Source of the DNA: Eubacteriales bacterium
Lineage (GTDB): Bacteria; Bacillota; Clostridia; Saccharofermentanales; DTU023
DNA: 50,089 bases
Direction: 5' to 3'
NCBI GenBank assembly: GCA_030537525.1
Contig: JAUNVU010000007.1
Location: forward strand, 1-50,089
Below, in pieces: positions 5,672 through 13,014 of this stretch. The notes under the pieces are model-generated. The model made no database searches. It saw only the letters and a list, made by a program, of their open reading frames with translations, and was not told the origin of the DNA. A program made the position numbers and the translations under genes. The stretch's first letter is position 1; each line of letters starts with the position of its first letter.

Positions 5672-6388
5672 TCACTCGGTATCGCCCGCTTTTAAAAATT
5701 CTCCAATCAGCGCAGGTCTCGCCTCTTCTGCGAGGTCAAAATTGGCTATTAGGCCAAGGGCAAATTGCTTATGAATGCTCGCAATCGAATCAGTCAGCAA
5801 ATAGTCTTCAGAGACAAATGGATAGGTCCAACCAGCTCTATATAGTCTACCCTGTATGGCAGGGTGTAGCTCTAGCTCTCCTTTGTGCATCAATACTGGC
5901 GCAAGCTCAGCACTAGGCCAGGGTCGATCAGGGTCTGCTTCGAAGGTCGAGCGCATACTTCCCTCGCGCCCCGCAGCAATGCCCAGCCGCGGACTAAAAA
6001 TTGCGCGCTCATTGATCTCTGCAGGCTCTCCCAAAGCAAAATCCAATTTCGGATCACTTTCCCTTAATACTGTGTAGACCAGCAGCTCAAAACCCGGACC
6101 AATGGCCAGTATTGGCTTATCGGCCGCCAAATAAGCTGCGAGCTTTTCACTGGCCGCAGTGAGTTCAGGTGCATAAGCAGCTGCCGTCAGCGCCTGATCA
6201 TTTAAGGAAATCAGCAAGAGAGCATCTTGTAAACCCTCTAACTCATCGCTTGCTGAGGTCAACATGTACTGTACAGTCTGACCTGCAGCCGCCGCCATCT
6301 CCCAAATTGTCGCTAGGAGCTTAGATTGTTCACCTGACTGTTGCCCATGTTTCGTCCAGCTCTCTGGTGCCAATACTTCAATAATCAT
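5672..6388 (-). CDS. Class I amidotransferase-like protein lacking the catalytic Cys (function unknown)
   Basis: 238 residues, soluble. The stretch KPILAIGPGFELLVYTVL (about 91-108) has the shape of the nucleophile elbow of CobQ/GatD-type glutamine amidotransferases (LAICGGYQLLG). A Gly (residue 97) occupies the position of the catalytic Cys. No clear C-terminal His-x-Glu dyad is visible either. If the fold assignment is right, the protein cannot hydrolyse glutamine and may act as a binding or scaffold subunit. No MurT-like partner is nearby. Its start overlaps the antiporter stop by one base (TAATG), so the two are translationally coupled; guaB follows after 52 bp. The family call is tentative and rests on one motif and overall shape. 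Confidence 0.45.
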   Translation of the reverse strand: MIIEVLAPESWTKHGQQSGEQSKLLATIWEMAAAAGQTVQYMLTSASDELEGLQDALLLISLNDQALTAAAYAPELTAASEKLAAYLAADKPILAIGPGFELLVYTVLRESDPKLDFALGEPAEINERAIFSPRLGIAAGREGSMRSTFEADPDRPWPSAELAPVLMHKGELELHPAIQGRLYRAGWTYPFVSEDYLLTDSIASIHKQFALGLIANFDLAEEARPALIGEFLKAGDTE

Positions 6389-7644
6389 TAGTACTTCTCC
6401 TTTACAGGCTTTTCAGGTTTATTATATGGCATCTTAGCGGCTAAAGCCTCGGCTTCCTTTCTCTTCACCGGTGGTCCTTGGATACATCCGGCTTTTGCCA
6501 ATGCAAATTTCGCCACCAGCGGTCCCAAAAGCTCGTAAACTAGCGTAGCACCCAGGATAACCGTTCTAATCATGCCTGCCTGCGGCTCAGGAATAATCTT
6601 GACTGCCAGCATGGAAAGGCCAATGGCTACACCAGCTTGTGGCATCAGGGTCAGACCCAGGTATTTTTGAACTGTCTTGGGATAGCCGACAATTCGCGTA
6701 CTGATAAATGAACCAAGCGCTTTACCGCAGACTCTGGCCACAATATAGAAGGCACCAATAGCCCCAACTGCAGCTAACTGATCGAGTTTGAGATCTGCTC
6801 CCGACAAGACGAAGAAGGCGATGAAGATCGGAGGTGTAACATTGTCTAGTAATTGATGATAACGTCTTGTCGTTCGCTGGAAATTACCCATTACGAAGCC
6901 AAATATCATCATACAGAGTAGCGATGAGATCTCAATGTAAATACAGAGAGCAGAAAGTGCGAATATGGCAGCCAGGACGAAGGCCAACATGTTCTGCGCA
7001 CTAGTAAGGAATCGCAGGATATAAGCGCCGATAAAGCCACAAACAGCACCGATTAAGAAAGCTAAGAAGATGTCTTTCAACGGATTTATCAGCATGGCGA
7101 GAAAATGAAGTTCTGAACCAGAGACCAGGCTCTTGGCAATCGACGAAGCCAGTCCGAAGACAATAATGCCAATACCATCATCTAAAGCAACAACAGGTAG
7201 TAAAACATCAACCAAGTCGCCTTTTGCCCTATACTGTTTAATGACTAATAGCGTCGCCGCTGGCGCAGTTGCACAGGCAATACTACCGAGCACCAGGGCA
7301 AAAGCCAGGCTTGTTTTGAAGATCAAAAAGAGCCCCGTACTAACGAGAATAAAGGCGCCAACCGCCTCGCAAACAGTTACCAATATGATCCCACCGCCAA
7401 GCTTCTTTAGATTAGAAACCTTCATCTCGCTACCAATCGAGAAAGCAATTAGGCTCAGGGCCACCTGACTGATCAAGCTCAGCGCTGGTAAGGCTTCCTC
7501 TGGTAATATACCAAGCACCGAAGGCCCGATTATCAAACCTGCAATCAGGTAGCCCGTGACGTCAGGTAATTTCAAATGGGCCAGCAACTTCGAGAAAATC
7601 AGACCCGCAAATAATAGAACTGCAAGGTAATATAAGATCTGCAT
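6388..7644 (-). CDS. CPA2-family cation:proton antiporter (Kef/NapA-like)
   Basis: Integral membrane exchanger of H+ for Na+ or K+. 418 residues with about 12 hydrophobic segments from residue 4 to about 385. The N-terminal signature LKLPDVTGYLIAGLIIGPSV is typical of KefB-type proteins. The core shows ACATAPAATLLVIKQY, where CPA2 exchangers place the unwound TM4 Thr-x-Pro region, and LPVVALDDGIGIIVFG, with the acidic DD pair on the ion-binding helix. There is no C-terminal RCK/TrkA-N domain; the tail is a short basic stretch. The preceding gene encodes a PII-like small protein and overlaps by one base (TAATG). That protein is a good candidate for the missing regulatory input. The ion specificity cannot be read from sequence. 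Confidence 0.9.
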   Translation of the reverse strand: MQILYYLAVLLFAGLIFSKLLAHLKLPDVTGYLIAGLIIGPSVLGILPEEALPALSLISQVALSLIAFSIGSEMKVSNLKKLGGGIILVTVCEAVGAFILVSTGLFLIFKTSLAFALVLGSIACATAPAATLLVIKQYRAKGDLVDVLLPVVALDDGIGIIVFGLASSIAKSLVSGSELHFLAMLINPLKDIFLAFLIGAVCGFIGAYILRFLTSAQNMLAFVLAAIFALSALCIYIEISSLLCMMIFGFVMGNFQRTTRRYHQLLDNVTPPIFIAFFVLSGADLKLDQLAAVGAIGAFYIVARVCGKALGSFISTRIVGYPKTVQKYLGLTLMPQAGVAIGLSMLAVKIIPEPQAGMIRTVILGATLVYELLGPLVAKFALAKAGCIQGPPVKRKEAEALAAKMPYNKPEKPVKEKY

Positions 7645-7997
7645 TATCTGGCCTCCTCGTCCACATTACCAAGTCCCTCTACAGAGGTGACTGGTAAAGT
7701 AAACATTAGGCCAGTATTCTCATGGTCTAGTCCACCCGTTACTTCGCGAGCTATTTCCTTAACTCGCTCTATATCAGAATCTTTCAAGATGAAAAAAATC
7801 GTCTTGTTATATGGTCGTCCCTCATTCATAACTTGGCGAAGATACCCAATACCAAATTCATGGGAAAATTGGGCGAGAGTTGCCGCAAGTCCCTGACTCT
7901 CGAGAATTGTTCCACGGGTAAAGCCCTGTTCACTGAGCTCGTGGAGGAGTTTGTCCAGATGGGATTCATGGTTCAATACTATAAATAATGCTTCCAT
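7644..7997 (-). CDS. PII-like (GlnB/CutA-fold) small regulatory protein
   Basis: 117 residues from the ATG at 7997, which has GGAGG 5 nt upstream. A longer in-frame ATG at 8009 would overlap that ribosome-binding site and is rejected. The sequence starts MEALFIVLNHESHLDKLLHE and continues with an alternating beta-alpha pattern: GFTRGTILESQGLA, then NKTIFFILKDSDIERVKEIA. This matches ferredoxin-like PII-type proteins of about 100-120 residues. PII-like proteins encoded with transporters usually bind a nucleotide or ion and gate the partner; here the partner would be the antiporter, whose gene follows with a one-base overlap. The fold call is by pattern, and no ligand can be inferred. Confidence 0.7.
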   Translation of the reverse strand: MEALFIVLNHESHLDKLLHELSEQGFTRGTILESQGLAATLAQFSHEFGIGYLRQVMNEGRPYNKTIFFILKDSDIERVKEIAREVTGGLDHENTGLMFTLPVTSVEGLGNVDEEAR

Positions 7998-8011
7998 AAT
8001 AGCCTCCATAG

Positions 8012-8035
8012 AAAAACCCTCGCGCTAGGCGAGGG
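8012..8035 (-). terminator. Intrinsic terminator after tRNA-Ser
   Basis: Minus-strand stem CCCTCGC/GCGAGGG (8017-8023 with 8029-8035), loop CTAGC, followed by a T-run. It lies 5 bp past the tRNA CCA and only about 14 nt before the start codon of the PII-like gene, leaving no room for a separate promoter for that operon. Confidence 0.88.
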
Positions 8036-8040
8036 CTAAT

Positions 8041-8131
8041 TGGCGGAAGCGGTGGGATTCGAACCCACGGATCGGTCACCCGATCAATGCTTTTCGAGAG
8101 CACCCCGTTACGGCCACTTCGGTACGCTTCC
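8041..8131 (-). tRNA. tRNA-Ser (anticodon CGA, decodes UCG)
   Basis: 91 nt including an encoded CCA (8043-8041). The acceptor stem GGAAGCG pairs with CGCTTCC, and the discriminator is G. The anticodon stem GTGCT/AGCAT encloses the loop CTCGAAA, giving anticodon CGA. A long variable arm (GATCGGGTGACCGATC region) marks it as a class II, serine-type tRNA. The T arm is GTGGGTTCGAATCCCAC. It is flanked upstream by a plausible promoter and downstream by an intrinsic terminator. Confidence 0.96.
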
Positions 8132-8161
8132 AAGACTAAGAGCTCTTGCTCTGCGTCGTTT

Positions 8162-8203: not shown

Positions 8204-9907
8204 CTATTCCAGCAGTTGCCGAGGTGAGAATGAACTATCACTTGGTCTTTTGTAGAGTGCCATATCCCAGCTGCTCTGCAGGGCTTTTGCCAAAGGTAAA
8301 TCAGGATACACGGCGAATTCGTCGTAGAAATCTGCTAACTCCAAGCCATTTTCTTGAATGTACGAAATGATCTTCGAGAGGAAGTGGCGCTGATTTGGCA
8401 GGGCGATTTCTGAGATCTTTCGCACCTTCGTCCAGATGAACTGCTCTTTGCCGAAATTTAGATGTTGGATATATTGGCGTTCCAACAGGCCGAGTTCTGG
8501 GCCACCAAATTCCGACTTGTCGAGGACGGAGCAGAGCTCACTCAGACCCTTCTCTACTGTAGAGCGCGGGTACGCATATTGTAGTGTGATCCAACCATGT
8601 AGGTAGAGGTAGTGACTGGCGCGCATCAAGATAATTGAGAGTAGACGATCAATTTGCTTGCCGCGCTTCAGAGTCGCAAGTGTCGGAAACAGCAAGGCCA
8701 AATCTTCGTGATTCAATGAGAACGCAAAGCGAGATAGTCTCTCCTGGCTGTTACAGTGGTTGAGCTGGGCTAAAAGCCAACTGCGTTGCGGTGGCTGCTG
8801 GGCCATCTGCATCTCCTGTGGCAGAGGATGCAGACGTCTGGCAAAATCCACAGCCTCTGAAAATGAAGACGACTGTCTAGGTAAACGAGGCACGTAGAAA
8901 GGCGGACTGAGCATGCCTGATTGAAGTTTCTCAACTGTGCGTTCAATGCGCTCTGGGCGAGCTTCTAAAGCTGCCCGTATGTCTGATTCTACAGCTTCCC
9001 GCTTCTTGGCAATCTCTCTTGCCAGGATATTTTCGCTATCTGGGCTCGGTTCGACCTTTAAGCTTCTTATGTAGTGTTGATCTTTCAAAAGCGGGTGAGA
9101 ATCGACGTCAGTTTCGAGGTCTGTATCAACAGTTGGACTGGCTGCCCCTCCCCTATCTGCTATATCTTCAAACTCAGTGGGGTTCTGTCGTCTTTGTACG
9201 TGTCTGATGCCAGAGGCAGTAGTCTCCGGTTCAGCCTCAAGTTCAACACTCTGTAAATCGGGCGGCAGGTTCTTCTCAAGCTCTGTGTATTCAGCCTGAT
9301 TGATTAGTTCACTACCGAGACGCCGATCTTCACTATCCTCAGCAGTCCCATCCTTTTTAAAATCAGGAAGCCGTTTGGCAAAGGCATCGACTTGTTCGCG
9401 GTCTCTGCTTTCTTTTACTGATTCACTGAATTTGGCATGTTCTCTCTCTTCTGCAACTTCTTGCGCATATCTACCAAGCTGCAATTTAACTGGTCTGATT
9501 CCGCTTGACGGCGTGACCTCCTGCCTAATTTCCCTTTTACTGACCACCCGTTCTGCAGTATTAATTTCAGCTTGCCTACGCTCCCCTTCTAGATTAATTC
9601 TGGGCTCTCGCAAATCTCCCTTATCGCGGGCCGCTGCAAGCTCTGCTCCACGATATAGCGAATTAACAAACTCACGAATATTGTCCTTCGCCTCTGTCGT
9701 GTTACTCTCTTCTGTCGTCCTGTCACCGTTGTCGATATCATCTTGAGCCGCTTTGAAGATCTTTTCTGCAGGATCATCGCTACTCTTGATAATTCTCTGA
9801 CGAGAAACAGCCTGCTCGGCACTAGCCATATTGGCTTTCTTCCAGAGCTCATCAACAGTTAGCTCGACTGGTCGTATTTTCTTTTCAGGATTGTCCGAAG
9901 CTGGCAC
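8204..9907 (-). CDS. Unrecognised soluble protein, partner of the upstream coiled-coil membrane protein
   Basis: 567 residues, no signal peptide or membrane segment. Residues 1 to about 330 are highly charged (Glu, Arg, Asp, Lys), low in hydrophobics and probably disordered. They carry three spaced copies of a short motif: KKIRPVEL (about 10), SGIRPVKL (about 136) and SGIRHVQR (about 233). Residues about 345-567 look like a compact helical domain, with RSWLLAQLNHCNSQERLSRF, LFPTLATLKRGKQIDRLL, ASHYLYLHGWITLQYAYPR and KVRKISEIALPNQRHFLSKI. I do not recognise the family. The stop is 72 bp from tRNA-Ser, and the start lies 9 bp after the stop of the membrane protein, so the two are one transcription unit. 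A link to the helical ZorC/EH_Signature type is only a guess from context. Confidence 0.8.
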   Translation of the reverse strand: MPASDNPEKKIRPVELTVDELWKKANMASAEQAVSRQRIIKSSDDPAEKIFKAAQDDIDNGDRTTEESNTTEAKDNIREFVNSLYRGAELAAARDKGDLREPRINLEGERRQAEINTAERVVSKREIRQEVTPSSGIRPVKLQLGRYAQEVAEEREHAKFSESVKESRDREQVDAFAKRLPDFKKDGTAEDSEDRRLGSELINQAEYTELEKNLPPDLQSVELEAEPETTASGIRHVQRRQNPTEFEDIADRGGAASPTVDTDLETDVDSHPLLKDQHYIRSLKVEPSPDSENILAREIAKKREAVESDIRAALEARPERIERTVEKLQSGMLSPPFYVPRLPRQSSSFSEAVDFARRLHPLPQEMQMAQQPPQRSWLLAQLNHCNSQERLSRFAFSLNHEDLALLFPTLATLKRGKQIDRLLSIILMRASHYLYLHGWITLQYAYPRSTVEKGLSELCSVLDKSEFGGPELGLLERQYIQHLNFGKEQFIWTKVRKISEIALPNQRHFLSKIISYIQENGLELADFYDEFAVYPDLPLAKALQSSWDMALYKRPSDSSFSPRQLLE

Positions 9908-9916
9908 AGCTCTCTC

Positions 9917-11416
9917 CTATATATCTTTATTCGGTCTTAATGCGACAGGCAAAGCTTCTACCGCATCCCGTATAGCTGAAGCCGTAAAAATCAGGCGCTC
10001 AACTACTTCCGCTAATCCATTATCAAATTTTTCAAGTGTCTGATTGACATAGCTTGCAGACTCGTGAGTGAAATTTTGACTCGAATGGGCAAGACTATTG
10101 CTTAGCCCTGTAATCTCTTCATTGAGTTCTTGTAGTCTAGCAACCAATCTTCGGTTCTGATCTTCTTGTTCAGTTCTAATTTGGCCTGCAAGTTCAAGTG
10201 ATTCACCACTGGCACTTAGAGCATCAGTTAACTTGTCAAAAGCCGCTTGCAACGAATCCGATAGTTCCATTATCCGTTGCGAAAGCCTTGCCTCTTCACC
10301 TGCATAAATAGCTGCCATCTTTTGAGTAGTTTCCGAAATCACCTCTAGGTTAGAGCTAATTTCCGAAATTTCATTGGCAAGATCACTCTTTGCAACAGTA
10401 AAGAGATGAAGCGAGTGGTTAAGCTCCTGATTCAATTCGATATTCTGCTGACGAGATGTTTCAAGAACAGCTACTGAGTCATGAATGAAGCCACGAGTGT
10501 CACCGATCATCTCAGATATTGCACTTAGTTCTGTACTAACTGGACTTAATTCGGCAGTTAATTTGGCAGCCACTGCTTGTGAAAATTGTTCGGCAAGTCT
10601 CGCCATCCCCGTCTCCTGCTCGGTGATCAATCGATCAGATAAATCTTGCATTAATTTAGCTGAATCACGAATTGGCGGCGAGATCTCCTGACTCATTATC
10701 TCTTTGACGCCCGCCTTGATACCATCTGAAAATTCTGAATCCGCGAGATAGCGAGCGGTCTTATTAAAATCTTTAAATGATTCATTTAAACGCTCCTCAT
10801 GCTCTTGTAAATCATCAACAAGAAGCGCAACGCCAGCACGATCATTAAAAACTGGAAACCGCATGGCAAGTGCCTTGTTGAGCTTGCCAAGTTCAGCTGA
10901 CAAACGTTCCTTATAGTATTTGTCTTGATGATATAAAATACCAACTCCCACTGCTGATACGATCAATGGTAGGAGCGCTGCAATTGGTTGAGTGGCTAAA
11001 TTCTTATTAAAGAGACAATAAATTGTCGCTACCAATCCTAAAACCGCAACTATAATTACAGCTACAAAGCTCTGCTTTCGAAGCTCTGCTGGACTCGGCT
11101 GCATAATATAGCTGAACTCATGTTCAGTGGGTGGCAGCCAGCGTTCGTCGTATTTGAGCGCGGACTCGTCCAACAGCTCTTGTAAACCACTTTCAATTGT
11201 TCCAGAAGGATTCTCAGCTATTAACTCTTCCAAGGCCAGACGATTATTCATGCTGCGGCCTGAAAATTGGCGGATTAGGTCACTGATCTGCCAGATATTA
11301 TCTAACTCGGCTCGTTCTCTTCTCCCTCTTATAAAATAGATAATCAGTGATATTCCCAAGCTCATTATTGGGATAAACAGTAGAAAAACTGTATCTAGAC
11401 TTAAAAATTTGGGCAT
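9917..11416 (-). CDS. Membrane protein with ExbB/ZorA-like topology and long cytoplasmic coiled-coil tail
   Basis: 499 residues. Hydrophobic segments lie at about 8-29, 117-136 and 143-163. Arg-Gly-Arg-Arg after the first puts the 87-residue loop inside the cell, and residues 164-499 are again cytoplasmic. A TM, a loop of about 87, then a tight TM hairpin with a cytoplasmic tail is the layout of ExbB/TolQ and of ZorA. However, the conserved MotA/TolQ channel motifs are not obvious. The tail is almost all amphipathic heptads rich in Ser, Glu and Leu (for example EISSNLEVISETTQKMAAIY) and should form a very long coiled coil. No ExbD/TolR/MotB-type partner is encoded nearby. Promoter and AGGAGG site are clear. 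Function unknown. Confidence 0.75.
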   Translation of the reverse strand: MPKFLSLDTVFLLFIPIMSLGISLIIYFIRGRRERAELDNIWQISDLIRQFSGRSMNNRLALEELIAENPSGTIESGLQELLDESALKYDERWLPPTEHEFSYIMQPSPAELRKQSFVAVIIVAVLGLVATIYCLFNKNLATQPIAALLPLIVSAVGVGILYHQDKYYKERLSAELGKLNKALAMRFPVFNDRAGVALLVDDLQEHEERLNESFKDFNKTARYLADSEFSDGIKAGVKEIMSQEISPPIRDSAKLMQDLSDRLITEQETGMARLAEQFSQAVAAKLTAELSPVSTELSAISEMIGDTRGFIHDSVAVLETSRQQNIELNQELNHSLHLFTVAKSDLANEISEISSNLEVISETTQKMAAIYAGEEARLSQRIMELSDSLQAAFDKLTDALSASGESLELAGQIRTEQEDQNRRLVARLQELNEEITGLSNSLAHSSQNFTHESASYVNQTLEKFDNGLAEVVERLIFTASAIRDAVEALPVALRPNKDI

Positions 11417-11445
11417 ATTCCCCTCCTCAATGGCTTATCTTGTTA

Positions 11446-11454
11446 ATTATAGCA
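11446..11454 (-). promoter_or_regulatory. Extended -10 promoter of the two-gene coiled-coil unit
   Basis: The minus strand reads TGCTATAAT, a perfect -10 (11446-11451) with the TGn extension. It lies about 30 bp before the ATG at 11416, and GAGGAGGGG provides the ribosome-binding site. No good -35 is present, as expected for an extended -10 promoter. Just upstream GGTC-N7-GACC forms a small inverted repeat that could be an operator. Confidence 0.6.
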
Positions 11455-11555
11455 AATATAGGTCATTTGCAGACCAAAAATATAGAAGTCGAATATTTTC
11501 AATCCTTTCCGACCACAGATAACTATATTCATTTTTAGGACTATTATATTATAGT

Positions 11556-11584
11556 TTGACAGTAAATTTCTCTTGTACTACTCT
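11556..11584 (+). promoter_or_regulatory. Probable promoter of tpl
   Basis: -35 TTGACA (11556-11561, perfect), 17-bp spacer, -10 TACTCT (11579-11584, weak). The leader is about 45 nt, with AGGAGG at 11621-11626, 8 nt before the ATG. No leader peptide of the tnaC type is visible. The rest of the 218-bp divergent gap holds only A+T-rich sequence and the opposite promoter. Confidence 0.5.

Positions 11585-11622: not shown

Positions 11623-13014
<1,392 letters not shown>

What the first reader, a model, noticed from the sequence alone, without database searches (positions are those of the whole stretch)
8204..11416. Unrecognised two-gene unit: ExbB/ZorA-topology membrane protein with 330-residue coiled-coil tail plus a soluble partner
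The sequence shows a clean two-gene operon (9-bp gap, extended -10 promoter, ends before a tRNA gene). The first protein has one TM, an 87-residue cytoplasmic loop, a tight TM hairpin and a huge cytoplasmic coiled coil. ExbB/TolQ and the ZorA subunit of Zorya anti-phage systems share that layout (established knowledge). No ExbD/TolR/MotB-like B subunit is present, and the second protein is soluble, with a disordered N-terminus and a helical C-terminal domain. A B-less membrane sensor plus effector, possibly defence-related, is inference. It is the best candidate for an undescribed system in this window.
Basis: partly seen in the sequence, partly recalled or inferred. Interest (0 to 1): 0.72.

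Follow-up and report, generated by a model that had tools for sequence, protein, structure and literature searches.

The report
Zorya-derived pair without motor or nuclease
Two neighbouring genes in an uncultured Clostridia bacterium encode stripped-down relatives of two proteins of the Zorya anti-phage machine; they have lost the ion-motor partner, the signature residues and the DNA-cutting enzyme, are inherited throughout a bacterial order, and have cousins inside type IV pilus gene clusters, so the core of a defence machine seems to do another job here.

Summary
The two-gene unit is real: a 499-aa membrane protein (A) and a 567-aa soluble protein (B), 9 bp apart. A's predicted fold matches solved ZorA chains first, then ExbB/TolQ; profile comparison agrees, with negative controls. 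B is a distant ZorC (EH_Signature) relative, shown through bridging ZorC proteins in true Zorya ABCD operons of the same phylum. Defining features of working Zorya are missing: no ZorB, no GxxGTF motif in A (0/28 versus 4/4), no adjacent ZorD, and E400/H443 replaced in all 11 ZorD-less ZorC relatives compared (8/8 canonical keep both). In the window's family B has lost the half that would carry them. The pair is core to three families of its order, vertically inherited (11/11 genera monophyletic) and under purifying selection. Outside the order, all 12 intact ZorD-less loci (7 families) lie in type IV pilus clusters; 0/4 canonical Zorya and 0/40 order loci do. One family keeps a ZorB between A and C, but without the ion-binding aspartate. 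Most likely a non-defence membrane scaffold related to Zorya. Homology is solid, function inferred.

The parts
9917..11416 (-). gene A: ZorA-like membrane protein, 499 aa
   Evidence: ORF; Foldseek/VIA top matches are ZorA chains; hhalign to ZorA Prob 89.7-97
8204..9907 (-). gene B: ZorC-like soluble protein, 567 aa, GTG start
   Evidence: ORF; homologous to C proteins that bridge to ZorC
11330..11386 (-). TM1 of A (residues 11-29)
   Evidence: hydropathy, helix 7-49 in model
11012..11068 (-). TM2 of A (residues 117-135); GxxGTF motif of ZorA absent
10931..10987 (-). TM3 of A (residues 144-162)
9920..10930 (-). cytoplasmic helical/coiled-coil tail of A (residues 163-499)
   Evidence: PADLOC ZorA1 model match 200-490, E 1e-6
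9935..10072 (-). conserved tail tip of A (residues 449-494)
   Evidence: alignments A1, A6, A10
8207..8896 (-). conserved all-helical domain of B (residues 338-567), N-terminal half of the ZorC-like protein
   Evidence: alignments, AlphaFold pLDDT 84; profile match ends at position 191 of 400
8897..9907 (-). variable, probably disordered N-terminal part of B (residues 1-337)
   Evidence: not conserved between genera; disorder is inferred
11446..11454 (-). extended -10 element TGCTATAAT
   Evidence: sequence; consensus match only
11420..11428 (-). ribosome-binding site of A
   Evidence: sequence
9912..9918 (-). ribosome-binding site of B, overlapping the stop of A
   Evidence: sequence
8041..8131 (-). 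tRNA-Ser (cga), downstream boundary
   Evidence: ARAGORN

Best explanation
The unit is a ZorA-ZorC-type pair that lacks the energising and catalytic parts of Zorya and serves a constitutive, non-defence role at the cell membrane. Shown by tools: A is a ZorA-family protein; B is a ZorC-family protein (by a chain of relatives); both are core, vertically inherited and under purifying selection; ZorB, the ZorA channel motif, the ZorC E/H pair and an adjacent ZorD are missing. Inferred: A forms a membrane ring (a pentamer, as solved ZorA and ExbB do) with a bundled cytoplasmic rod; B docks on the rod; with no ZorB there is neither a peptidoglycan tether nor ion-driven rotation, so the complex is a passive scaffold or tension sensor that holds B and its partners at the envelope. 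Because all intact ZorD-less relatives found outside the order lie in type IV pilus clusters, the related and perhaps ancestral role is likely linked to surface filaments; in the window's order the pair is no longer next to pilus genes.
For: Fold: PDB search of A 1-290 ranks ZorA 8qyh/8qyd/8qyk/8qyy first (Foldseek prob 1.00, E 1.3e-3 to 4.6e-3), ExbB/TolQ next; VIA Z 12.8-13.2 for five ZorA entries, about 10-11 for ExbB/TolQ, at most 9.2 for others. Profiles: A core without tail vs ZorA Prob 89.7, E 1.8e-6; C family vs ZorC Prob 91.7, E 7.6e-7; 18 unrelated families Prob at most 0.8, E at least 0.069; A vs ZorC and C vs ZorA at most 0.7. Bridging: in full ABCD operons L163-L165 the C gene matches the C-family profile (7.8e-26, 7.2e-17, 2.2e-20) and the ZorC profile (6.9e-12, 2.2e-19, 5.9e-5); A of L163 matches the A core (7.5e-11) and ZorA (9.8e-33). 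Loss: E400/H443 8/8 vs 0/11; GxxGTF 4/4 vs 0/28 and 0/9; ZorB profile only one borderline hit (9e-4) in 37 family genomes. Vertical: 11/11 genera monophyletic, 0/200 shuffles; dN/dS 0.05-0.24. Pilus linkage of relatives.
Against: No function was measured. The window's own B matches ZorC only through a chain (family-1 B alone vs ZorC gives nothing), and its predicted fold did not retrieve ZorC 8r68 (inconclusive). In the order itself no pilus gene lies near the pair, and several genomes with the pair have no PilB. A core gene can still be a defence gene. Models of A are moderate (pLDDT 78).
Confidence: 0.6

Rival explanations
1. A reduced but working anti-phage system: A senses envelope damage without ZorB and B is the effector.
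For: Both proteins are homologous to subunits of a defence system; some defence genes are vertically inherited.
Against: ZorB, the channel motif, E400/H443 and ZorD, all kept in the Zorya operons compared, are missing; ion flux through ZorAB is required for defence (PMC11890865); core, vertical distribution among housekeeping genes; no copy on plasmids or in IMG/VR at the sensitivity used.
Confidence: 0.12
2. An accessory of type IV filaments: the A-C (or A-B-C) complex anchors or regulates pilus machinery; in the window's lineage it now serves the Tad/Flp filament or a residual function.
For: 12 of 12 intact ZorD-less loci outside the order, in 7 families, lie beside PilB/PilT/PilC/PilD or prepilin genes; 0 of 4 canonical Zorya loci do. 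A second A-C copy in one genome of the order sits next to a prepilin gene (L097). The window genome has a Tad/Flp-type locus (L168).
Against: 0 of 40 primary loci of the order have pilus genes nearby; genomes with the pair but no PilB exist, and the family f2, which has PilB, lacks the pair.
Confidence: 0.22
3. A is an independent ExbB/TolQ-like protein and B an unrelated helical protein; the Zorya resemblance is convergent.
For: Generic helical folds give middling matches; plain hmmscan finds no MotA_ExbB or EH_Signature match above cut-off.
Against: Specific profile matches with clean controls, bridging sequences and the same gene order A-(B)-C.
Confidence: 0.03
4. A decaying relic of a former Zorya system.
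For: Loss of ZorB, of the EH residues and of the C-terminal half of B; remnants of C in two outgroup genomes (L166, L186).
Against: Open frames kept across dozens of species with dN/dS 0.05-0.24 and a conserved tail tip.
Confidence: 0.03

Closest known systems
Zorya type I (ZorA-ZorB-ZorC-ZorD), e.g. Klebsiella plasmid copy L103; PDB 8qyd (ZorAB), 8r68 (ZorC)
   Same: A is ZorA-like in fold, topology and tail; B is ZorC-like over its N-terminal half; gene order A then C
   Different: No ZorB, no ZorD, no GxxGTF motif, no E400/H443 pair, B truncated; chromosomal core gene pair
A-ZorB-C trio of family f44 (L098-L100), between aroE and pilB-pilT-pilC
   Same: Homologous A and C, no ZorD beside them
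   Different: Keeps a ZorB (ZorB1 model E 1e-62 to 2e-66), but a 2-residue deletion removes the ion-binding Asp; pilus-linked; C keeps its C-terminal half
ZorD-less A-C pairs in type IV pilus clusters (L101, L102, L159-L162, L183-L185)
   Same: Two adjacent genes, no ZorB, no ZorD, EH residues replaced where checked
   Different: Embedded in pilus clusters; full-length C; longer A (up to 1059 aa)
ExbB/TolQ
   Same: TM layout and overall fold of A residues 1-216
   Different: Lower structural scores than ZorA; ExbD not found in the own genome; 337-residue tail

Membership tests
ZorA protein family (as homologue) | MotA/ExbB-type fold with ZorA as best match | tested here: met
ZorA protein family (as homologue) | profile similarity beyond controls, core without coil | tested here: met
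ZorA protein family (as homologue) | TM2 GxxGTF motif | tested here: not met
   0/28 in the order, 4/4 canonical Firmicutes ZorA
ZorA protein family (as homologue) | pentameric assembly | not testable with these tools
   no multimer prediction or experiment available
ZorC / EH_Signature family (as homologue) | profile similarity to ZorC | tested here: met
   for the C family as a whole; for the window's B only through the chain (family-1 B vs A7 Prob 99.6)
ZorC / EH_Signature family (as homologue) | E400 and H443 | tested here: not met
   replaced in 11/11 ZorD-less relatives; region absent in the window
ZorC / EH_Signature family (as homologue) | Pfam PF15611 above gathering score | tested here: not met
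   no match for the window; best relative 16.6 bits vs 27.5
ZorC / EH_Signature family (as homologue) | same fold as solved ZorC 8r68 | tested here: inconclusive
   8r68 not listed for the B domain model
Zorya type I defence system | ZorB with TM aspartate | tested here: not met
   not found in own genome (69% complete); one borderline hit in the family; f44 ZorB lacks the Asp
Zorya type I defence system | adjacent ZorD SNF2 helicase-nuclease | tested here: not met
   gene neighbourhoods
Zorya type I defence system | anti-phage activity | not testable with these tools
   needs a plaque assay
ExbB/TolQ system | ExbD/TolR partner | tested here: not met
   PF02472 in 1/59 genomes, not the own one
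Type IV pilus accessory | linkage to pil genes | tested here: not met
   not for the window and 40 order loci; met in 12/12 loci outside the order

The most novel reading that the evidence does not exclude
A Firmicutes family of ZorA-ZorC modules without motor and nuclease works with type IV filaments or another envelope machine, and Zorya phage defence either arose from this housekeeping module or was domesticated into it.
Probability: 0.35. Interest if true: 0.8.

Novelty: new variant of a known kind. Interest (0 to 1): 0.6.

Why it matters
Zorya is described as a flagellar-motor-like complex turned to phage defence, with ion flux and ZorB required. A conserved branch that keeps ZorA and ZorC but lacks motor, signature residues and nuclease, and whose relatives track type IV pilus clusters, would show what ZorA and ZorC can do alone, give the family a non-defence context, and make the origin of Zorya testable. 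It also warns that ZorA/ZorB profile hits in Firmicutes (the f44 ZorB scores 2e-66 to a PADLOC ZorB1 model) need not mean defence.

Tried and rejected
Mobile defence island: no plasmid or viral-contig match, vertical tree. Coiled-coil artefact: tested by cutting the tail (A5) and by 18 control families. Plain hmmscan with Pfam MotA_ExbB and EH_Signature: not significant for the window; absence of PDLC00615 hits in the class is not evidence, as no control genome rang. PDB sequence search with the B profiles: only chance hits. Fold search of the B domain: HEAT/TPR-like chance matches, Z at most 6.0, ZorC not listed, which proves nothing. Pilus role in the window itself: no pil genes near; the single T2SSE ATPase match of the genome belongs to a Tad/Flp-type locus. 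No paper found in the held library describes a ZorB-less ZorA-ZorC pair or a pilus-linked one. The 2024 Nature paper on Zorya is not held, so that E400 and H443 of ZorC matter for defence is from my own memory; their conservation was tested here.

Full report
What is there. The window holds an operon of two genes on the minus strand, A (9917-11416, 499 aa) and B (8204-9907, 567 aa), 9 bp apart, each with a good ribosome-binding site, followed by tRNA-Ser. A has TM helices at 11-29, 117-135 and 144-162 and a 337-residue cytoplasmic tail; B has none.

Distribution. The genome is a 1.0-Mb, 69%-complete MAG. A occurs in 34 of 37 genomes of the family (own included), in 7/8 and 7/8 of two sister families and in 0/6 of a third; B in 35/37 of the family and, with lower similarity, in the sister families. 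Where A is found with enough flanking DNA, a gene of the B type nearly always follows. Named records of relatives are Clostridia MAGs labelled Fastidiosipila sp., Mageeibacillus sp., DTU023, DTU032. The pair lies in at least three contexts: next to ddl/PBP/recG genes (also in the window), next to CTP synthase-IMPDH-greA-lysS, or near fabD. A tree of A puts every genus with two or more rows in one clade (11 of 11; the minimum number of changes; 0 of 200 shuffles as low). Close pairs show dN/dS of 0.05-0.18 for A and 0.12-0.24 for B. This is a vertically inherited core pair.

What A is. PADLOC's ZorA1 model hits the tail (E 1e-6), which alone could be coil bias. The core (residues 1-290) was therefore folded with 33 relatives (pLDDT 78). 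The PDB search puts four ZorA entries first and ExbB/TolQ next; the second aligner gives Z 12.8-13.2 for ZorA, about 10-11 for ExbB/TolQ and at most 9.2 for the rest. Profile-profile comparison of the core with five ZorA proteins gives Prob 89.7, E 1.8e-6, against Prob at most 0.8 and E at least 0.069 for 18 unrelated families.

What B is. Relatives of B in the sister families have an extra C-terminal half, and two of them weakly match the PADLOC ZorC1 'EH signature' model (best 2.8e-4). A profile of C proteins from five families matches ZorC proteins with Prob 91.7, E 7.6e-7 over 280 collinear columns; controls are at most 0.6. A phylum-wide search found full A-B-C-D Zorya operons (L163-L165, L167), three of whose C genes match both the C-family profile (down to 7.8e-26) and the ZorC profile. 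So B belongs to the ZorC superfamily; the window's own B connects through the chain (its family vs the C family, Prob 99.6).

What is missing. In canonical ZorC, E400 and H443 are kept in 8/8; in ZorD-less relatives they are D/N and Y/F/L/I in 11/11, and the window's family lacks the whole region, the profile match ending near position 191-208 of 400 in all but one of its members examined. The ZorA motif GxxGTF is kept in 4/4 canonical Firmicutes ZorA and in 0/28 A proteins of the order and 0/9 pilus-linked ones. ZorB is absent from the order apart from three weak hits and ExbD apart from one. In family f44 a ZorB remains between A and C (PADLOC ZorB1 E 1e-62 to 2e-66; nearest solved chain ZorB 8qyd_F), but a two-residue deletion removes the TM aspartate that the canonical ones have. 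Ion flux through ZorAB is required for Zorya defence (PMC11890865). The set looks like a series: A-B-C-D; A-B(no Asp)-C; A-C; A-truncated C. Its direction is inferred, not rooted.

The pilus link. All 12 intact ZorD-less loci found outside the order (L098-L102, L159-L162, L183-L185; 7 families, some genomes of one genus) have type IV pilus genes (PilB/PilT, often PilC, PilM-like, PilD) beside the pair, and prepilin genes often adjoin A. None of 4 canonical Zorya loci and none of 40 order loci do. A second A-C copy in one f3 genome adjoins a prepilin gene. In the order the pair is independent of pil genes, and members without PilB keep it.

Mechanism. Shown: homology, losses, conservation. Inferred: A forms a ring in the membrane with a rod-like tail, B binds the rod, and with no peptidoglycan-bound ZorB and no ion path the complex is a scaffold or passive sensor rather than a motor. 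I put 0.6 on a non-defence membrane scaffold, 0.22 on a filament-linked role in particular, 0.12 on a reduced defence system.

Novelty. The homologous parts are known; the pair without ZorB, ZorD and EH residues, its core status in an order, and the pilus linkage of its relatives are not described in the papers I could search. I class it as a new variant of a known kind.

Noticed in passing
L098:8065-8889, L099:4294-5091, L100:3056-3865: ZorB-like proteins that match PADLOC ZorB1 at 1e-62 to 2e-66 but whose TM lacks the ion-binding Asp because of a 2-residue deletion, in A-B-C trios between aroE and pilB-pilT-pilC.
   Followed up: yes
L097:8183-10774 and 6900-8159: A second, divergent A-C pair (863-aa A) in an f3 genome (G041), next to a type IV prepilin gene at 11038-11583.
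   Followed up: partly
L163, L164, L165, L167: Canonical Zorya A-B-C-D operons in other families of the same phylum.
   Followed up: partly
L166:9344-9694, L186:9314-9598: Short C remnants in two genomes of the genus that otherwise has the pilus-linked pair: the module can be lost.
   Followed up: no
window 6388-8009: A Na+/H+ antiporter (PF00999) next to a 121-aa protein weakly like P-II (E 0.074): possibly a PII-regulated cation transporter operon.
   Followed up: no
window 11635-13014: A beta-eliminating lyase 94% identical to its copy in the sister species, while neighbouring proteins are about 43-73% identical; silent sites are saturated, so this is slow evolution, not recent transfer.
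   Followed up: partly
L168:6159-10050 (G000:C22): A Tad/Flp-type locus in the window's genome: CpaF-like ATPase, a 495-aa protein and a 64-aa Flp-like pilin; similar loci in relatives.
   Followed up: partly
L140:1-1436: End of an A gene plus a C gene on a contig labelled Anaerolineaceae (Chloroflexota); perhaps a misbinned contig.
   Followed up: no
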